In this document: in pieces, positions 19,007 through 34,539 of the stretch | Position numbering within the stretch: the stretch's first letter is position 1 | Layout of the letters: the number at the start of each line of letters is the position of its first letter | DNA from: a virus | Virus record (IMG/VR): IMGVR_UViG_3300008448_000282 | Span: 1 to 36,693 of that record | Length of the DNA: 36,693 bases | Direction: 5' to 3' (one strand) | Notes under the pieces: generated by a model | What the model was told of the DNA's origin: nothing | Database searches by the model: none | The model's input: only the letters and a program-made list of their open reading frames with translations | Program-made: the position numbers and the translations under genes

Positions 19007-21316
19007 TCAATTGTATTTATCAAGCCAACCATTCTTGGCTTTAGGTTTATTATAGTTAGTAAAGTTAAGTAATTGATCTAAATGTTGAACAGTCTTTTCA
19101 TCCTGTTGATTAACACCATTTTTAGCTACAGGATATTCTTTCACCTTCTTACCCTTGAATTTATAATCTTTTCCTGGTTCCATGTATTGAACATCTCCTT
19201 CATCTGAGATTCCTAAAAGAGGACCATATTCTACATTCTTCATCGTTATATCTGGAGAATCTATTTCCACCACCTTTCCCCAATTATCAGGATTCCAATA
19301 CCCATCATTATCTTTCACTACACCACCTTTTTTCTTTTGTTCAGGTTTATTTGATAATAATTTACCAACATCTTTTTTCAAATACGATATAGCTGGTAAT
19401 AAAAGAGGAGTTCCAAGAGGAGTAGGATTTTCTTTTGTTCCATATAGTTCATTTCCTACATACTGGGCTCCAGATGCTTTTATTCCATACCTCAACGCTT
19501 CCTCTGAACCATGTTGAATATTTGCTAATGTTGGATTTAATAATATCTTTTCTCTTAATGATCTTTTAGAAGGGTCTAACACTGATATTATAGGTATTTC
19601 GGTATATGCTGAAGAGAACGGAAATCTTCTAAATACACCTGTAGCTCCTTCAGATAAAGGTATTTCATTAAGAGAAGACTTATATCCTCTTTGTAAACCA
19701 GCTTTATTTTTATTAAGCATTTCTAATCCCTCTACTTGTTTTGGATTTACACCAACAGCAAAAGTTCCACGATACCCTTCCCAAGTTGTTTCAGGGCTAA
19801 AATAAGGAGCATCATAACCACCTCCACTTCTTATAGCACCACTTTCTATTAAATCCTTTATTCCACCTCCGCTTCCTATTTTTCTATAGTATTGATAATC
19901 CCCAAGATCGCCAAGAGCAGTGATTGGATTTAATGTATAAATAGATCCAAAGTTGTTTTGTTGAGGAGGAGGCAAAGCCTCTGATTTAGGTTTAGGAACT
20001 TCTTTATATCCTCTTAGCCAATCTTGTTTATAGAATTTAGCATTATCAATAGGAATAGGTTTGTCAAATATTACTTCAGATCCATCAAATTGAATATCTT
20101 TTGCATTTTTTTCTAATATTTTTGGTAATTCAACCATATGTTGTTTTCCTTTACCATATCCACCATAAGTTTCAGCAAATTCAAATGAAGGACTGGTGTA
20201 TAAATCTTGATATTTGCCTTTTGGATTAGGTCTAATTAAACCACTTTCTATAGCATCTCTATATCCTGCTTCTCCAATTCCTCTATATAAAGATTCAGGA
20301 TTAGGTTTAAATGCCCAAGGATTATATTTATATGCATTTCTTAAAGGAGTTTGTGTTGTAAGATATTCACCCACTTTTGGAGCAACGTTAACTATTCCCT
20401 TACCTCCTAAATATGCAAGTTCACCAACTGGCATGAGCGTTAAGGGAACATCTACAAGATTGTGAATGATTCTTTCTGACTGCTCTCTGTTTCTTTCTTG
20501 CAAAGATGTAGGCATAGTAAAATCTCTACCTAAAACTTCCTCTTCATATTTCACTCTATCTTCATAAGCTTGTCTATCTTTCTCTTTCTGTTTAGCTGTT
20601 CTTGTATCAGCACCTATTGTTGTTCTTGTTCTTGCTTCCTGTGCTTTCTTTTCTTTTGTTTTTTGTGTAGCTATTTCGGTTTTTAATTTTTGATTACCTC
20701 TTTGAGAGATGTCAGAAGACTTTCTCATATACCAAGGTATATCATCTCCCACTTGGGCTTTGTGAATTTCTGACCCATACTCACTTATGTTCTTAGGAGT
20801 CCAATCTAGTCCTTCTTGGTAGAATCTCATCTCCTGTCCATTCTGTGCTTTTGGATTATCGTTAGCACCTGTTACCTCCCAATTATCATTAAAATAAATA
20901 ACACTTCCACTTTTTGTTTTCACCTTTTTAGCTCCAAGCTTTTTAGCTTGTGCTGCCATAGCTTTCCAGTTAGGAACCCATACACCATCTTTAAAATCAC
21001 CAACATCTTCTATAACTGGAATAGATGCTCCATTCTGAGCACTAGGAACTGTTTTCTTTCCATAAGGACCTTCAGAAGGAATTCCTTGCGTGCGTGCGTA
21101 CGTGAATCCTACAGCACCAGGAATGTTTCCACCCATTGCATACATAGGAAGGGTTTGATTAGCACCAGCCATAGGGGGTTGTAAAATACCACCATCTCTC
21201 CAAGCTCCTCCCCATGCAGGAGAATAATTAAATCCTTTATCTGTCAATCCACCCATCGTACCTTCTATACCATTTTGGGCTTCAGGAATTTCATATTTGT
21301 CTAACCACTTCTTCAT
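19007..21316 (-). CDS. Virion cargo protein, 769 aa, with two tandem ADP-ribosyltransferase-like modules
   Basis: The ATG at 21316 overlaps the upstream TAA (TAATG). The first 200 residues carry the short motif AQNG or AQVG at 13-16, 93-96, 157-160 and 187-190; AKNG recurs at 731-734 and 760-763. WLDKY occurs at both ends (residues 4-8 and 764-768). The C-terminal block (GYWNPDNWGKVVEID onward) is one I associate with crAss-like phage virion proteins. Between these, two related modules start with LYRGIGEAGYRDAIESGLIR (343-362) and YYRKIGSGGGIKDLIESGAIR (one residue longer, first residue 476). The first has R345, T374/S375 in YTSPS and E414 in SEVIFDKPIPI, an order consistent with the R-S-E class of ADP-ribosyltransferase folds. 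The second has R478, FSPET and E573 as weaker counterparts. Such domains could modify a host protein after ejection; this is inferred from motif pattern only. Confidence 0.6.
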   Translation of the reverse strand: MKKWLDKYEIPEAQNGIEGTMGGLTDKGFNYSPAWGGAWRDGGILQPPMAGANQTLPMYAMGGNIPGAVGFTYARTQGIPSEGPYGKKTVPSAQNGASIPVIEDVGDFKDGVWVPNWKAMAAQAKKLGAKKVKTKSGSVIYFNDNWEVTGANDNPKAQNGQEMRFYQEGLDWTPKNISEYGSEIHKAQVGDDIPWYMRKSSDISQRGNQKLKTEIATQKTKEKKAQEARTRTTIGADTRTAKQKEKDRQAYEDRVKYEEEVLGRDFTMPTSLQERNREQSERIIHNLVDVPLTLMPVGELAYLGGKGIVNVAPKVGEYLTTQTPLRNAYKYNPWAFKPNPESLYRGIGEAGYRDAIESGLIRPNPKGKYQDLYTSPSFEFAETYGGYGKGKQHMVELPKILEKNAKDIQFDGSEVIFDKPIPIDNAKFYKQDWLRGYKEVPKPKSEALPPPQQNNFGSIYTLNPITALGDLGDYQYYRKIGSGGGIKDLIESGAIRSGGGYDAPYFSPETTWEGYRGTFAVGVNPKQVEGLEMLNKNKAGLQRGYKSSLNEIPLSEGATGVFRRFPFSSAYTEIPIISVLDPSKRSLREKILLNPTLANIQHGSEEALRYGIKASGAQYVGNELYGTKENPTPLGTPLLLPAISYLKKDVGKLLSNKPEQKKKGGVVKDNDGYWNPDNWGKVVEIDSPDITMKNVEYGPLLGISDEGDVQYMEPGKDYKFKGKKVKEYPVAKNGVNQQDEKTVQHLDQLLNFTNYNKPKAKNGWLDKYN

Positions 21317-22206: not shown

Positions 22207-25200
22207 TTAAGAACAACTCACCCCTCCACAAGTTCCCGAAGGAATATTGTTAGGAATATTTGCACTTGGAACACCTATTGTAGTTCCTACTATTTCATAA
22301 GTGAAACCATCATCACCTAAGTAGAACTGACCAATAGTCAATGAGTGAGGTGATGATACCAAAACACTACTTGCATCTAATATACAACTTCCACATACAT
22401 ATTTACTTGCTTCATAAACAACAGATGGAATAACTGTAGTGGTAGAAGTGGTTGTAGAAGTAGTTTCACCTGGACATAGACACAAAGGTGACTCACCTAA
22501 ATCAGCTATTCCAATTGTTGGAGAATAGATGTTGTAACAAACAACTGCTCCATAGTTATCAAACCCTTGAACAATAACACCTTCACAATTTTGATAAGTG
22601 TAATAATCAATGACATTAACAAATCCTTGATGACAGTCACATTGGAAGATTGTTGTAGTTGTTGTAGTGGTGGTGGGCTCTCCTGTTGTAGTAGTGGTGG
22701 TTGTTGTAGGTTCTAATGTTGTTGTGGTTGTTGTAGTTGGTGTAATTGTAGTGGTGGTAGTAGTTGTAGTTTCTTCCACTGGAACTGCTACAATTGCCTC
22801 AAAATCAGTACAACAATCATTTATACCAGAATAGAAAAAGTTATTCTCAGCTATGTACCAATTAGGAATGTAACTGTGAAAACTAACCCAAGCCCTTGTT
22901 ACAAAATTGTAAGAAAGAGACCATGATTTATTACAGAAGTATTCACGATCTGTTAATCTCACTGTATTTCTCACTACAGTGTCATTATTAGTTTCTTCTA
23001 TGTAAAACTCTTGGAGATCAGCATCGTATTTTATATCTTTATTCAGAGGGATGTAGTCAAGCTTTGTGATGATTATCCTATCAAACTTACTATCATACAC
23101 TCCATGTAATCCTATTCCATTGAAATGATTGTCTGTATTTACATTTGGAAAATATCTAAGGATTTCAAAAGCCAAATGATCTGTGAAGAACCTGTTCATC
23201 CCTGAACCAGGGGCACATAAATCTGTTGCTTGATTTCCAGATATTACAAATATCTGACCTCTTTTAGCATCAACAGTCACCTGTCCTTGTGGAATCTTCA
23301 AGAGCATCTTGTTCTGACTTCCTACATATCCAAGGTCTGTTTCCGCAAAATCAATTGGAGGAGCAGCTTTGAAAAGTGTATCATTACCAATATAAGCAGC
23401 TTGAGGGTTGCTTGTATTGATGGTGAGCATAGTGTTGTAGAGAAGAGATTTATTTTCAAATCTAGCTAATACAGCTTTATTCTGAATACCATCTAAAGAA
23501 ATAAGATCTCCATAGTTCTGAGGGAAGTCAAAAGAGCTTATTGGTCTGTATATCAACCAATTATTAATCCTGTTGTCTGTAAAACTTTGCTGTGTGTCAG
23601 AATAAATAGCTCTGAAAGGAAAGTTTGTATAACACAATTGCTCTCTCCAATCTAAAGGAAGATGACTGAAGAAATTCTCTTTGTTTTGTTTTGAGAATGT
23701 AGAATTGTAATAATATGTATTATCGTTTGCTATAGAAACAAACCTTTCCTGAAACCAGTCATCAGGAATACCAGAACTCACCCTTGGCCAGAAATCACCT
23801 TCTCTATTATTAAACGCCTGTCTTAAATCAACATTCACACTAGACTCACAATAGAAATTTGGTATTCCGTATGCAAACAAGTAAAACTTTCCATCATAGA
23901 AAGTTCTATTTGGGTTTACAACAGGAGGAGTGGCTGTTGGGTCAGGTGCAGGTAGTTGACTGTTAGGACAATCAAAATTGTGTGCCTTATAAGAAATAAT
24001 ATTTGTTAAGTATTCAGTGGGTCCTCCTACACTGTAAATATAATCAGAAAGAACAGATCTTGCTGAGTGCCAGTATTTTGGGTAGGCAACATTACCAATC
24101 TCATCGTAGAATATATCACTATCATCAGGTGCACCTACACGATTATCAATAAAGAATGGAAGCTTTGTTTTAAACGCAAATCTGCTAATAAATGTATCAC
24201 CTCCAAAGACAACACCACTTGTAGAAGAAGGTTTATCAATAAGTTCTTGATATCCTGTATCAATTGTGTTATATGAATATATTTGTCCCCATTGATTAGG
24301 GAAAACATTCTTCAAAGACCCATAATACGATACACCTTTTATTTTAAACAGTTTTTCTGGTTCGTTACATATACTTACCAGTCCTCCTGTATTAGAAGGT
24401 ACACTTGATGCAACAAATCTTGTTTCATCAGTTATTGCTGAAAACACACCGCCTATCAATAAACTTGGTACTCTATTTGGATAGACAAGTGGAGATATTG
24501 GTGTTGATTTTCTTGAATCAACAGTTTTAATGTAAACAGAAGATTCTCTGTTCCAGTTATTAATATTTAAATCATCCCCAACAGATTGTACTCCTGGGAA
24601 TAAATATTGACACTTATCAATCTCCCTTTGTTTAAATCCATTATTTTGAACAGCTGCTGAATAATCATAAGACAATCTTGAATTATAAGAATATGCATAA
24701 TTCTTTCTTGTAATCCCATTAACATATATAGTTAAATAGGACTGATAGGCAGCAAACATTGCTGATGCATTAAATGTTCCTGTAATCTCTGCAATTGTCT
24801 TACTTGCATCAAGAGCATCTTGTTGTGCCTCTTTTGTAAGCAGTTTATACTTAGCATTATCTCTCACTTTTACAAAATGACCTTCCCCAGCACCAAATAT
24901 AACATTCTCTATTTTTAATACACCTCCAAGAAAAGGTTGTCCAAAAGATGTTTCTGGAGAATTAAACACATGCCTATATTTAGAAGCATCTGATTCAAAT
25001 GCTTTTAAGTTTACAGGTTCGCAACTTAATACTGAATTACTACTAATTTCCTCAATTCCAAAATCACAACCTAAACATATTCCCTCAGGAAGAGAAAAAG
25101 ATTGTATAGTGAGGCTGTTTCCTTGAACCACTTGAATTACACTCACTGGTCCTGTTGGCGTAGTTTGTATCCTGAAAAGACAAATTCCTGATATACAAGT

Positions 25201-27279
25201 TAATCTGTATGATGTTGGTGTAACACGAGTTATTGTCACTGTACCAGGAGCTACTGGAGTTGAAAGAGAACACACCTGAATTGTTTGTCCTGCAGAAATA
25301 TTTCCTGAAGTTTGTGTATTTGTAAAACAATCTGTATATGTATACACTTCATTTGCAGTTGATGTCAGCGTGTATTCTTTACATTCATCGATAAACCCAT
25401 TACTTTTATCAAGAAGAAAAGGATCTTCTCTTAAATCATTATAAGGATAGTTGGGGAAGTAGTACTCTGTACCATCTCTTTCATATTTACCTACATTCCT
25501 TAAAATACCTTTTGCAACAATTGAGCTGTTTGTATTCCTATCACCACGAACAATTTTAAATCCAACAATTTGGTCTTTTTGTTCTCTGGTGAGACTAGAA
25601 GTTTCGATAAGAAGTGCCACCTGTTCAACATCCACCTTAACACCTATTGGAAAAACAGCATCATTCTGCATAACAGGATTTATATTTCCTGTTACAGAAT
25701 AGGTGGGAGATTCAAATATGGGGCTAACTAAAACATCTGGAAACTTGTGGTGTCTGATGGGTTGATTAGAAAGTTCTCCCCATACATCCTCATTACATGG
25801 ATAGAGCTCTGTTGATTCCCAATAAGCAAATTCTCCATATCGATAGGGAGTGGCATTTCCAATATTAAAACCTGTAGCAGCACCTATAACAGTGGCTGTA
25901 TTATAAATATTCCAATACTTACTATATCCTATTCCTGTGCCAGAATCTACATAATCAGGAACACCAATGAAATCAGGATTTGTTTCTGGAATATCAGGAA
26001 GTGTTGATTCTGCTGGAAATAAAGTTCTTCCAGGGATGTGAAAACCATCTGTTTGTTTACCGTTATCTAAAAGAAAAACTATCTCAAAAGCATACACTTC
26101 ATCCCTAAGATAACCTCTCAGATTTGTTGCATATATCTCTTTCGAATAGTCTTCATCAGAAGGAAGTCTGTAGGTTTGCCATTTCAAATCAATTTGATTG
26201 GCAATTCTCTGATAGTTTATTCTATCTATAGATGTAAGATTATCCCAGATGAGAATATCTTGCGCTGTTGTTAAATCCTGTGCTATTTCGTAATAAGGAA
26301 ACTTCTCAAATATATCATCTATTGTAAGACGTATCTGTGTAACATTCTGTCCACTGTAGGTGATATCCTTTACAGAATCATCAATGAAATATGTACCAAT
26401 CAATTCCACTGATGTAATTGCGTTCACTGTTTTTATTACAGCAACGTTGAAATATTTAAAATAACCAGTGGTATCAATGTTATTTATATTAACTACGATT
26501 GATTTCCCTACATTATAATTAAAATCAGGAGTGATGATGTTTTTATTTGCTATCGGTACAGGGTTAGTAACTGAGTAGTAGGATGTATATCCATCACCAG
26601 CAACATCACAATATTGTATAGCAAATTGATAAGTGCCAGCTGTAAGATTACCAATATTCACCACATCTACAATTTCTATCTGAGGAATTGTAAAGTTTGG
26701 TTGAACAGACAGTTTGTTACAATCTATTTCAGTTGTAAACTCTCTATCACAAACATCAGTGTTTGGTTTTATTTTATAAGGAGGTTCTGAGAGGTTTAAA
26801 TATCTTCTTGGATTTATACCGTCTGTCCAATAGATTTCTGTAAAACAGTTAGTTATTTTATGAACAGCTTTGTGAATAGGATGGTTTATATTAAAGTTTA
26901 AACAATCTGCATTTATGTAAGGAACATAAACACAATTGTTGTTTTCCATATATCCTATTTCAGATTTTCCTTCTTCAGTGTTGAGAAGAAAAAATATGTG
27001 CTTGTTCTGTTCCTGTATAAAATGTTTTCCTATCAAAACGTACCCTTCAGGAAATGAAACACAAAGTTCATTACCAGGTTCGTTCTGATAGGAAATAGAA
27101 TTATCGTCAAAGTTTTCAACAGCAGCATTCAATGCATATGTGAGAGAACCTTTTGCAATCTGATTTACAGATTGATCCATGTTCAGCCCAATTGAACCAG
27201 TGTTGTGGTTGATGTTTATAGCATCTGCACTAGGACTAACTAAATCTTTTATTTTCTTAATTATTTCGTCTCCAGCCAT
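22207..27279 (-). CDS. Tail stabilisation / muzzle protein, 1690 aa (P22 gp10-like nozzle in crAss-like phages)
   Basis: This is the large beta-rich protein that forms the distal end of the short tail. The N-terminal block is the clearest evidence: NMDQSVNQIAKGSLTYALNA followed by VENFDDNSISYQNE and FPEGYVLIG. I know this pattern as the start of crAss-like tail stabilisation (muzzle) proteins. The length and the place right after the tail tubular gene also fit. The start overlaps the end of the tube gene by 23 bases. Two Thr-rich linkers are visible near residues 1503-1543 and 1605-1615. They separate small Cys-rich domains (QCDCHQG; CLCPGE; VCGSCIL; CGGVSCS at the end). These C-terminal units look like added display modules not needed for the core fold. 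Receptor contact by them is inference. Confidence 0.8.
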   Translation of the reverse strand: MAGDEIIKKIKDLVSPSADAININHNTGSIGLNMDQSVNQIAKGSLTYALNAAVENFDDNSISYQNEPGNELCVSFPEGYVLIGKHFIQEQNKHIFFLLNTEEGKSEIGYMENNNCVYVPYINADCLNFNINHPIHKAVHKITNCFTEIYWTDGINPRRYLNLSEPPYKIKPNTDVCDREFTTEIDCNKLSVQPNFTIPQIEIVDVVNIGNLTAGTYQFAIQYCDVAGDGYTSYYSVTNPVPIANKNIITPDFNYNVGKSIVVNINNIDTTGYFKYFNVAVIKTVNAITSVELIGTYFIDDSVKDITYSGQNVTQIRLTIDDIFEKFPYYEIAQDLTTAQDILIWDNLTSIDRINYQRIANQIDLKWQTYRLPSDEDYSKEIYATNLRGYLRDEVYAFEIVFLLDNGKQTDGFHIPGRTLFPAESTLPDIPETNPDFIGVPDYVDSGTGIGYSKYWNIYNTATVIGAATGFNIGNATPYRYGEFAYWESTELYPCNEDVWGELSNQPIRHHKFPDVLVSPIFESPTYSVTGNINPVMQNDAVFPIGVKVDVEQVALLIETSSLTREQKDQIVGFKIVRGDRNTNSSIVAKGILRNVGKYERDGTEYYFPNYPYNDLREDPFLLDKSNGFIDECKEYTLTSTANEVYTYTDCFTNTQTSGNISAGQTIQVCSLSTPVAPGTVTITRVTPTSYRLTCISGICLFRIQTTPTGPVSVIQVVQGNSLTIQSFSLPEGICLGCDFGIEEISSNSVLSCEPVNLKAFESDASKYRHVFNSPETSFGQPFLGGVLKIENVIFGAGEGHFVKVRDNAKYKLLTKEAQQDALDASKTIAEITGTFNASAMFAAYQSYLTIYVNGITRKNYAYSYNSRLSYDYSAAVQNNGFKQREIDKCQYLFPGVQSVGDDLNINNWNRESSVYIKTVDSRKSTPISPLVYPNRVPSLLIGGVFSAITDETRFVASSVPSNTGGLVSICNEPEKLFKIKGVSYYGSLKNVFPNQWGQIYSYNTIDTGYQELIDKPSSTSGVVFGGDTFISRFAFKTKLPFFIDNRVGAPDDSDIFYDEIGNVAYPKYWHSARSVLSDYIYSVGGPTEYLTNIISYKAHNFDCPNSQLPAPDPTATPPVVNPNRTFYDGKFYLFAYGIPNFYCESSVNVDLRQAFNNREGDFWPRVSSGIPDDWFQERFVSIANDNTYYYNSTFSKQNKENFFSHLPLDWREQLCYTNFPFRAIYSDTQQSFTDNRINNWLIYRPISSFDFPQNYGDLISLDGIQNKAVLARFENKSLLYNTMLTINTSNPQAAYIGNDTLFKAAPPIDFAETDLGYVGSQNKMLLKIPQGQVTVDAKRGQIFVISGNQATDLCAPGSGMNRFFTDHLAFEILRYFPNVNTDNHFNGIGLHGVYDSKFDRIIITKLDYIPLNKDIKYDADLQEFYIEETNNDTVVRNTVRLTDREYFCNKSWSLSYNFVTRAWVSFHSYIPNWYIAENNFFYSGINDCCTDFEAIVAVPVEETTTTTTTTITPTTTTTTTLEPTTTTTTTTGEPTTTTTTTTIFQCDCHQGFVNVIDYYTYQNCEGVIVQGFDNYGAVVCYNIYSPTIGIADLGESPLCLCPGETTSTTTSTTTVIPSVVYEASKYVCGSCILDASSVLVSSPHSLTIGQFYLGDDGFTYEIVGTTIGVPSANIPNNIPSGTCGGVSCS
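22435..22464. repeat. Short Thr/Ser-codon repeat in the muzzle gene
   Basis: Low-complexity ACN/TCN codons encode TTSTTTSTTT on the minus strand, between two Cys-rich modules near the end of the muzzle protein. Same composition as the longer tract at 22651. Confidence 0.7.
22651..22770. repeat. Long Thr-codon repeat in the muzzle gene
   Basis: Four runs of seven to eight ACN (Thr) codons, separated by ITP, LEP and GEP, cover about 40 codons. On the plus strand this reads as GTNGTNGTN. Similar DNA occurs in the 127-aa and 385-aa genes. At protein level it is an extended, probably flexible linker. Confidence 0.8.
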
Positions 27280-30862: not shown

Positions 30863-31246
30863 TTACAATATAATAATAGTAGTAGTTGTTGTCGTTGTAC
30901 TTGTACTTGTTGTAGTAGTAGTGGTTGGTGCTATAGTGGTGGTTGTAGTAGTAGTAGTGGTGCAACCACTCAATATTTCACACAACAATAACTTTAATGA
31001 AGGATTTGTGTTTATAACATTTAATATTTGCAAAGCCATGTTTTCAGGACAAACTATGTCATCTATCTTCTGTAGAGCCACTGTTAATGGGTCACAGGTA
31101 GAAATTTCTGTACATGGCAGATTTCCTCCATTGTAAAAGACGTTATCTGTATTAGTTTTATAGACATTACAAGGATCAACACCACAATGTTTTGGATAGG
31201 TGTTTCCACTTAGATTATAACAAGGAGTACCAGATTTACAGCCCAT
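30863..31246 (-). CDS. Short fibre-base-like protein, 127 aa, with shared anchor motif and Thr-rich tail
   Basis: The protein starts MGCKSGTPC and has, at residues 36-58, NVFYNGGNLPCTEISTCDPL. This resembles residues 18-37 of the neighbouring 361-aa fibre (CVKYTGIDVPVLGIQKGDSL): shared V-x-Y-x-G-x-x-[LV]-P-x-x-x-I-x-x-x-D-x-L. I read this as a common anchor to the virion. A short helical part follows, then about 30 residues that are nearly all Thr, and the chain ends IIIL. No receptor-binding domain follows. It could be a fibre that lost its head, or a decoration protein. It is the last gene before the terminator. Ten bases separate it from the fibre gene. Confidence 0.65.
   Translation of the reverse strand: MGCKSGTPCYNLSGNTYPKHCGVDPCNVYKTNTDNVFYNGGNLPCTEISTCDPLTVALQKIDDIVCPENMALQILNVINTNPSLKLLLCEILSGCTTTTTTTTTIAPTTTTTTSTSTTTTTTTIIIL
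30881..30963. repeat. Thr-codon repeat in the 127-aa gene
   Basis: ACN codons repeat for about 28 codons with one IAP interruption; the plus strand reads GTNGTNGTN. Same unit as in the muzzle and 385-aa genes. Confidence 0.8.
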
Positions 31247-33381: not shown

Positions 33382-34539
33382 TTAAGGAATTAAAGTTGTT
33401 GTAGTGCTTGTTGTAGGCCATACAGTGGTAGTAGTGCTTGTAGTTGTGATACAAGTGTTACCACCTTCAGGAACACCCAATGCATCTTCAAGAATAGCTC
33501 CAAGTGCAGCAGAAGCAGCCTGAGGAACAGCAATGATTACCATGCTATCTTCCTTAATGTAGTCACCCCAGCTATAAACAGACTTGTCATACTCATTAAA
33601 CTTAATGTAATAAGTGTCATAAGTAGTACCAGCACTCACCCAGCTTTCAAAGTTTTCGTTGTAACCAACCATTCTGTAGAGATGCTTCAAATAACCAGCT
33701 TGGTAGCTATAGAAGTTCTTTTCTAATTGGATGATTTCATCAGAAGTACCTGTAGGATAGGAAGCACGCTGTGTAATAGTTGCTGTAGCAACAATGTTAC
33801 AATTGTCAGCCACAATAAAGTCAGCAGTGGTAGCAGGACCAGAATAAACGAAAGTACGGAAGTACATTCTATCATATTCAAAAGGAAATGCTGCTACATC
33901 ACAAGGCTGGCCATATTTAGTCAGAGGCTTACCAGAGATGCGAAGAATTGCATTAGCATCGTTACCAATTCTTTGGAACTGATAGAAAGTGCTAAAGCTA
34001 ATGTTGTCAGGATTGATACCAGGTCCTTTTTGCTGAAGCTTAAGAATAAAAGCATCAATCAAAGCAGGAACATCAACAGTGTCACAAGGATCACCGCCAC
34101 AATCGCAACAAGGAGCTTGAACAGTTACACTACGAGTGAAACCGTTAAAGTAGAGAGTGTCAATGTAAGAAGAGTGTGCACGTAATGTTAAAGTTACAGT
34201 GTCACCACATTTTACGTTCCAACCACTAACATCAGTTACCTGAGTTGCAGCTGTAGGACATCCTGTTACAGTGTACCATTCAGTTACGTTTGATTTACAA
34301 TTTCCACCTTCACCACATCCAGAGATTTTGTCTGAACGCTTAGATCCTTGTAAATAAGTGTTAACCCTACCTTGGGCAATGTAGAAATAAGGGGCACTAC
34401 CAGGAGTGTTTGTAGCTACATAGTTGTTATCAAAGATACCAACTTGGCCAGCTGTAAGGTTCTGCGTAGAGCTACCAGTTGGGAATGAATTTTGCCCCAC
34501 TGGCACTACGAAGAGCGTAGTTAATGAAAAATCAGCCAT
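33382..34539 (-). CDS. Cys-rich virion structural protein, 385 aa, with Thr-rich C-terminal tail
   Basis: MADFSLTTLFVVPVGQNSFP begins a beta-rich protein. Features: a Cys cluster SGCGEGGNC; a second cluster APCCDCGGDPCDT; a helical piece (VPALIDAFILKLQQKGPG); a domain with FPFEYDRMYFRTFVYSGP; and a tail of TTTSTTTT and TTSTTTT units ending LIP. The leader is A-rich (TAAATATAAAACAAAATG). Its place, three genes after the capsid gene, and its size fit an auxiliary capsid or head-decoration protein, but I cannot name the family with certainty. The Thr tail resembles those of the 127-aa protein and the muzzle. Confidence 0.55.
   Translation of the reverse strand: MADFSLTTLFVVPVGQNSFPTGSSTQNLTAGQVGIFDNNYVATNTPGSAPYFYIAQGRVNTYLQGSKRSDKISGCGEGGNCKSNVTEWYTVTGCPTAATQVTDVSGWNVKCGDTVTLTLRAHSSYIDTLYFNGFTRSVTVQAPCCDCGGDPCDTVDVPALIDAFILKLQQKGPGINPDNISFSTFYQFQRIGNDANAILRISGKPLTKYGQPCDVAAFPFEYDRMYFRTFVYSGPATTADFIVADNCNIVATATITQRASYPTGTSDEIIQLEKNFYSYQAGYLKHLYRMVGYNENFESWVSAGTTYDTYYIKFNEYDKSVYSWGDYIKEDSMVIIAVPQAASAALGAILEDALGVPEGGNTCITTTSTTTTVWPTTSTTTTLIP
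33394..33449. repeat. Thr-codon repeat at the end of the 385-aa gene
   Basis: ACN/TCN codons repeat in two runs split by VWP on the minus strand. Same repeat type as in the muzzle and 127-aa genes. Confidence 0.7.

What the first reader, a model, noticed from the sequence alone, without database searches (positions are those of the whole stretch)
19562..20326. Tandem ADP-ribosyltransferase-like modules in a packaged protein
Two segments of the 769-aa protein share YR-x-IG, then D-x-IESG-x-IR. The first also has YTSPS and SEVIFDKPIPI in the order of R-S-E transferases (R345, T374/S375, E414). Modules of this kind inside an ejected protein would reach the host with the DNA, as the T4 transferases Alt and ModA do by other means. 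The second copy has weaker active-site residues and might be a partner or decoy.
Basis: partly seen in the sequence, partly recalled or inferred. Interest (0 to 1): 0.7.

Follow-up and report, generated by a model that had tools for sequence, protein, structure and literature searches.

The report
Swappable ART-fold module in ejected phage protein
A crAss-like phage protein that is probably carried in the virion holds two related modules, the first with the fold of ADP-ribosylating enzymes, and relatives show that phages trade this module through nearly identical DNA edges while its middle changes, so it may be an exchangeable weapon used on the host at the start of infection.

Summary
The 769-aa ORF (19007-21316, minus strand) lies in the cargo-protein cluster of a crAss-like phage and holds two related modules. 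Module 1 (327-443) is predicted confidently (pLDDT 86) and its best PDB structure matches are all ADP-ribosyltransferase (ART) superfamily folds (KptA/Tpt1, DUF952, TreTu, RhsP2). No sequence library recognises it. Module 2 is related to module 1 by profile, has G522 where module 1 has E396, and could not be modelled. Packaging is supported by synteny and a shared domain with MS/MS-identified virion proteins of Cellulophaga phages. Its two edges are alike in DNA (synonymous codon identity 0.81 and 0.77, against 0.48-0.54 for neighbouring genes), while cores can be unalignable. I read it as an ejected, recombination-swapped ART-fold effector: a new family in the polyvalent-protein style. Catalysis is unproven.

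The parts
19007..21316 (-). 769-aa mosaic cargo-type protein holding both modules
   Evidence: ORF; lies after the muzzle gene and a 292-aa gene and before the large cargo/RNAP-size genes, as in phi4:1 and phi17:2, where the syntenic proteins are annotated as virion proteins, in phi4:1 from MS/MS
21020..21316 (-). N-terminal frame (residues 1-99): WLDKYEIPEAQNG ... GFTYAR ... PSAQNG, shared by relatives with different modules
   Evidence: BLASTP matches of residues 1-62 and 58-99 to many loci at 40-81% identity, at differing spacing
20402..20470 (-). hydrophobic segment (about residues 283-305) before module 1; the hydropathy peak of the whole protein
   Evidence: window peaks at 283 and 287; in 35 of 41 relatives the 95 aa upstream of the module exceed the 90th percentile of random segments of the same protein
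19988..20338 (-). module 1 (residues 327-443), ART-fold domain
   Evidence: AF2 mean pLDDT 86.3, pTM 0.78; Foldseek PDB top 28 hits ART superfamily or ART-like; profile family
20267..20338 (-). module 1 N edge (residues 327-350, NAYKYNPWAFKPNPESLYRGIGEA), holds strand 1 with R345
   Evidence: identical-codon fraction 0.811 vs 0.551 amino-acid-matched expectation, above expectation in 84/84 loci
19988..20056 (-). module 1 C edge (residues 421-443, IPIDNAKFYKQDWLRGYKEVPKP), last strands
   Evidence: identical-codon fraction 0.767 vs 0.538 expected, above in 83/84 loci
20282..20284 (-). R345, strand 1 (52/55 R, 3/55 H)
20192..20200 (-). Y373-T374-S375, strand 2 (column 373: Y 38, F 8, H 5 of 55; column 375: S 18, T 11, N 10)
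20129..20131 (-). E396, strand 3 (53/55 E): the near-invariant acidic residue of the family
20075..20077 (-).
19517..19948 (-). module 2 (residues 457-600), diverged paralogue; R478, Y505/S507, G522 at the E396 position
   Evidence: profile match 23.5 bits vs shuffle maximum 6.9; alignment; poor model
19112..19336 (-). C-terminal frame domain (residues 661-735, ...SPDITMKNV...GISDEG...)
   Evidence: matches phi17:2 gp041 (annotated by likeness to MS/MS-detected phi4:1 gp040) at E=6.5e-15 and Lbo-JY46 XAI97386 at E=1.3e-24 in a 5-protein search
22207..27279 (-). muzzle protein, identifies a crAss-like phage
   Evidence: PF25731 crAss_MUZ E=2e-38

Best explanation
The 769-aa protein is a cargo protein of a crAss-like phage: packaged in the virion and ejected into the host with or ahead of the DNA. 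It is a mosaic in which a shared frame carries interchangeable effector modules. Module 1 is an ART-superfamily domain that, once inside, most likely transfers ADP-ribose from NAD to a host molecule (or cleaves NAD) at the start of infection, using R345 with the strand-2 Y/S and probably E396 instead of a classical strand-5 glutamate. A hydrophobic segment before it may help it through the envelope. Phages swap the module, or its target-determining core, by recombination at conserved DNA edges that encode the first and last strands of the fold. Module 2 is a diverged copy that has lost the conserved glutamate and is probably inactive or has another role. Shown: sequence family, predicted ART fold, residue conservation, mosaic architecture, excess synonymous identity of the edges. 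Inferred: packaging of this particular protein, ejection, NAD chemistry, the host target, and that recombination caused the edge identity.
For: Fold: AF2 pLDDT 86.3; top 28 PDB matches all ART superfamily or ART-like, probability 0.89-1.00. Conservation: R345 52/55, E396 53/55. Packaging: crAss muzzle upstream; phi4:1 genes gp040 and gp041 in the same place detected in virions by MS/MS; the C-terminal frame is homologous to phi17:2 gp041, the phi4:1 gp040 counterpart; phicrAss001 cargo proteins gp45/gp46 follow its muzzle and are proposed to be ejected (PMC10172136). Effector company: phage lysozymes in L013, L014 and phi17:2 gp042, HExxH motifs in 12 of 41 module-bearing proteins. Swapping: edge codon identity 0.81/0.77 vs 0.48-0.54 in neighbouring genes, edge above muzzle in 58/58 loci; edges match at DNA level in phages with no other DNA match to the window; window vs L013 edges 88%/95% nt with no core BLASTP match; L050 shares residues 423-768 at 75% (module 2 at 93%) while neighbouring genes are 37-62% identical, and lacks module 1.
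Against: No sequence-level match to any ART family in Pfam, PHROGs or PDB. Foldseek E-values are modest (best 2e-3 in PDB, TM about 0.5). The classical strand-5 E/D is not conserved, so many members may not be NAD enzymes. No MS data exist for this protein itself. Model geometry could not be inspected. Edge DNA identity could also reflect a DNA- or RNA-level constraint.
Confidence: 0.6

Rival explanations
1. ART fold without ART chemistry: the module is a binding domain (for example of nucleotide, RNA or protein) or a structural packing module of the cargo protein, and R345/E396 are conserved for folding or binding.
For: The strand-5 acidic residue E414 is missing in 53/55 members; one of the best structural matches, CC0527/DUF952, has no enzymatic role that I know of; edges are conserved more than the core.
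Against: R345 and E396 stay near-invariant while the rest of the core diverges beyond alignment, which looks more like a functional pair than a scaffold; fast-diversifying cores beside lysozyme and HExxH modules fit effectors.
Confidence: 0.3
2. A classical R-S-E transferase of the Alt/ModA kind, with R345, S375 and E414.
For: R345, Y-T-S and E414 are in the right order, and E414 begins a predicted late strand as in ARTs.
Against: E414 in only 2/55 relatives; no Pfam or PHROG match; closest folds are KptA, DUF952, TreTu and RhsP2, not Alt.
Confidence: 0.1
3. The excess synonymous identity at the module edges comes from a DNA or RNA signal at the edges (a nested element) and not from recombination.
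For: Both edges show it in nearly every relative, which a functional element would also give.
Against: The module sits at very different places in its proteins, usually once per phage; codon identity grades off into the core (0.64); relatives with nearly the same edges carry unalignable cores; L050 shows a sharply bounded shared stretch.
Confidence: 0.25
4. The protein is not injected: it is a tail or head structural protein, and the modules are degenerate remnants.
For: Module 2 is diverged; no direct proteomics for this phage.
Against: Module 1 is a widespread family with constrained residues, and syntenic proteins carry lysozymes and HExxH motifs (and the sequence).
Confidence: 0.15

Closest known systems
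Polyvalent proteins of phages and mobile elements (Iyer et al. 2017, PMC5512222)
   Same: Large multidomain, probably virion-borne proteins combining ART, lysozyme and metallopeptidase domains, predicted to act early in the host
   Different: Their ARTs are the H-Y-D Tox-ART-HYD2 clade; here strand 1 carries R, the strand-5 acid is not conserved and a strand-3 E is; the term crassphage does not occur there; conserved exchange edges are not described in the passages read
T4 Alt / ModA / ModB (Alt/VIP2 R-S-E clade)
   Same: Phage ART, Alt packaged and injected; R on strand 1
   Different: No sequence match, no conserved strand-5 E; module embedded in a mosaic cargo protein
KptA/Tpt1 RNA 2'-phosphotransferases
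   Same: Best PDB fold matches (9ldi E=2e-3, 8tfz, 6e3a)
   Different: Only about 95 of 180 residues are matched; no sequence match
Rhs-borne ART toxin domains TreTu and RhsP2
   Same: Compact ART fold (7zhl TM 0.39-0.44 over 77 columns); variable toxin domains on a conserved carrier
   Different: Those are C-terminal and secretion-delivered; here the variable core sits between two conserved edges inside one fold and the carrier is a phage cargo protein
phicrAss001 cargo proteins gp45/gp46 (PMC10172136)
   Same: Genes next to the muzzle, virion proteins proposed to be ejected, hydrophobic segment (gp45 TM helix)
   Different: No ART-fold module is mentioned in the passages read

Membership tests
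ART superfamily (fold) | Split beta-sheet ART core with strand-helix order | tested here: met
   AF2 pLDDT 86.3; Foldseek PDB top 28 hits all ART superfamily or ART-like; module 1 only
ART superfamily (fold) | R or H on strand 1 | tested here: met
   R345: R in 52/55, H in 3/55
ART superfamily (fold) | S/T or Y on strand 2 | tested here: met
   Column 373 Y/F/H in 51/55, column 375 S/T in 29/55
R-S-E ART (Alt/ModA/VIP2 clade) | Conserved E at the strand-5 position | tested here: not met
   E414 in 2/55
R-S-E ART (Alt/ModA/VIP2 clade) | Profile match to Pfam or PHROG ART families | tested here: not met
   No such match; best ART-like hint DUF3990 E=0.14 in one member
Active ART enzyme | NAD binding, hydrolysis or ADP-ribosyl transfer | not testable with these tools
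   Needs biochemistry
Polyvalent-protein ART (Tox-ART-HYD2) | H-Y-D active site | tested here: not met
   R, not H, on strand 1 in 52/55; no conserved D at the strand-5 position; no Pfam hit
Polyvalent protein (architecture) | Several enzymatic domains in one large virion-associated protein | tested here: met
   For relatives: L013 lysozyme + HExxH + module; phi17:2 gp042 lysozyme + HE-x-x-H motifs read in its sequence, its phi4:1 counterpart gp041 detected by MS/MS. For the window protein itself only the two modules are seen
crAss-like phage cargo protein | Gene next to the muzzle in the virion cluster | tested here: met
   (one 292-aa gene lies between)
crAss-like phage cargo protein | Present in the virion and ejected | tested here: inconclusive
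   Homologous C-terminal frame and synteny with MS/MS-detected proteins; not shown for this protein
Module 2 as an ART | ART fold | tested here: inconclusive
   Profile match to module 1, but pLDDT 52.7 and no informative fold match

The most novel reading that the evidence does not exclude
crAss-like phages share a pool of injected ART-fold effectors whose cores (target specificity and even active-site layout, R or H on strand 1, with a strand-3 glutamate) are exchanged by homologous recombination at conserved DNA edges lying inside the fold: an in-fold cassette system for host takeover or counter-defence.
Probability: 0.35. Interest if true: 0.82.

Novelty: new variant of a known kind. Interest (0 to 1): 0.62.

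Why it matters
crAss-like phages are among the most abundant phages known, and what most of their ejected cargo does is unknown. A recognisable effector family in that cargo, with two near-invariant residues to mutate, makes the question testable. The exchange edges give a marker for finding further cargo effectors, and they suggest how such phages diversify what they inject.

Tried and rejected
Pfam, PHROGs and PDB sequence searches found no ART or other relative. Whole protein and a relative's module against annotated phages: none. Module 2 relatives: only one 93% copy besides the identical protein, hence the poor model and uninformative fold search. E414 as catalytic residue: rejected on conservation. 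Multi-copy gene conversion within a genome as the cause of edge identity: unlikely, as nearly all records hold one module. Diversity-generating retroelement: considered and set aside, because cores differ by large insertions and deletions, not by substitutions at fixed positions; no search for a reverse transcriptase was made. Search in cellular genomes: a single hit in a Dependentiae MAG contig that looks like a phage.

Full report
WHAT IS THERE. The window is a piece of a crAss-like phage: the 1690-aa ORF at 22207-27279 matches the crAss muzzle family PF25731 (E=2e-38) and its closest named relatives are Leptolyngbya phage Lbo-JY46 and the Cellulophaga phages phi17:2 and phi4:1. On the minus strand the muzzle is followed by a 292-aa gene, the 769-aa gene of the finding (19007-21316), then genes of 1174, 928 and more than 4200 aa.

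MODULE 1 HAS THE ART FOLD. Relatives of residues 327-443 were collected from IMG/VR (55 distinct at 85% similarity). With 29 sequences AlphaFold2 gave pLDDT 86.3 and pTM 0.78. Foldseek against the PDB returned only ART superfamily or ART-like structures in its first 28 places: KptA/Tpt1, CC0527 (DUF952), TreTu, RhsP2, with probabilities of 0.89-1.00. Among predicted viral structures six matched below E=1e-3, one of them a 'structural protein' of Flavobacterium phage elemoC. PDB E-values are modest (2e-3) and TM-scores about 0.5, so this is superfamily-level likeness. Sequence libraries find nothing.

THE ACTIVE SITE IS NOT AS PROPOSED. R345 is conserved (52/55, otherwise H) and strand 2 begins with an aromatic residue or H in most; but E414 is shared only with L045 (2/55). 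The near-invariant acid is E396 on strand 3 (53/55). Module 2's model is poor. That E396 is catalytic is inference.

THE PROTEIN IS A MOSAIC CARGO PROTEIN. The gene after the muzzle in phi17:2 (gp042) encodes a phage lysozyme (PF18013, E=9e-32) plus HE-x-x-H motifs, and its phi4:1 counterpart gp041 was detected in virions by MS/MS. The C-terminal frame of the window protein (661-735) is homologous to phi17:2 gp041, whose phi4:1 counterpart gp040 is also MS/MS-detected. In phicrAss001 the cargo proteins gp45 and gp46 are proposed to be ejected and to form the channel (PMC10172136). In relatives, module 1 occurs anywhere from about residue 120 to 1450 of proteins of about 430-2500 aa, together with lysozymes (L013, L014) and HExxH motifs (12 of 41). 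It is preceded by a hydrophobic segment (35 of 41 above the 90th percentile of their own protein).

THE EDGES ARE EXCHANGED. At DNA level the module's two edges match phages that share no other detected DNA with the window (for example L013, L014, L017, L024-L031). Between window and relatives, codons for identical residues are the same in 0.811 (N edge) and 0.767 (C edge) of cases, against 0.48-0.54 in the neighbouring genes and 0.55/0.54 expected for the same amino acids; 84/84 and 83/84 loci exceed expectation, and the edges exceed the muzzle in 58/58 loci that hold both. Some of these loci are near-duplicates, so the counts are not independent events. The search patterns were degenerate, so codon choice was not selected for. 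Cores can be unalignable behind nearly the same edges (window vs L013: 88% and 95% nt, no core match; 31 of 119 high-edge pairs). The near relative L050 shares the stretch from residue 423 to the end at 75% (module 2 at 93%) while its neighbouring genes are 37-62% identical, and it has no module 1. Nearly all records hold one module. The simplest reading is recombination at the edges; a DNA- or RNA-level constraint is not excluded.

WHAT IT IS LIKE AND WHAT IT IS. It works like an injected phage ART (T4 Alt) and sits in a protein built like the polyvalent proteins of Iyer et al. (PMC5512222), but it fails the defining residues of both the Alt clade (R-S-E) and the polyvalent ARTs (H-Y-D). I therefore place it in the ART superfamily as an undescribed family, in a polyvalent-style cargo protein. 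In the papers held, ARTs or polyvalent proteins are not linked to crAss-like phages: PMC9503650 and PMC5512222 have no occurrence of the crAss terms searched, the Crassvirales review has none of 'ADP-ribos', and joint searches gave nothing relevant.

LIMITS. Catalysis, target and delivery are not shown. Module 2's fold stays open.

Noticed in passing
window 19007-21316; also L050:759-4682: An A-[QK]-N-G-type motif (PEAQNG, PSAQNG, PKAQNG, PVAKNG, PKAKNG) recurs between modules: 8 matches to the wider pattern in the 769-aa protein against 1.75 expected (shuffle maximum 6). In L050 it sits near most module boundaries. It could be a processing site or an exchange joint.
   Followed up: partly
L118 (RXKB01000023.1, 103,683 bases): A contig filed as a Candidatus Dependentiae MAG encodes a module-bearing 772-aa protein between very large phage-type ORFs; it looks like a crAss-like phage contig binned into a bacterium.
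   Followed up: partly
PP438436.1, L117: Leptolyngbya phage Lbo-JY46 (recorded host a cyanobacterium) has a crAss-type muzzle and cargo genes and is the closest named relative of the window's muzzle; host assignment worth checking.
   Followed up: no
L007:3633-7160 and L018:4422-8159: A module variant with YHRSPN in place of YRGIG (H on strand 1) and a quite different core between the same edges, possibly an H-type ART core.
   Followed up: no
L004:2805-6803, about residues 1115-1200: By eye, a GNAT-like acetyltransferase segment (ELRRQGLASKIYKDI) lies beside the module; no Pfam match at E 0.01.
   Followed up: no
window 30863-31246, 33382-34539 and 22207-27279: Low-complexity threonine-rich tails (TTTTTTT) in three virion-cluster ORFs.
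   Followed up: no
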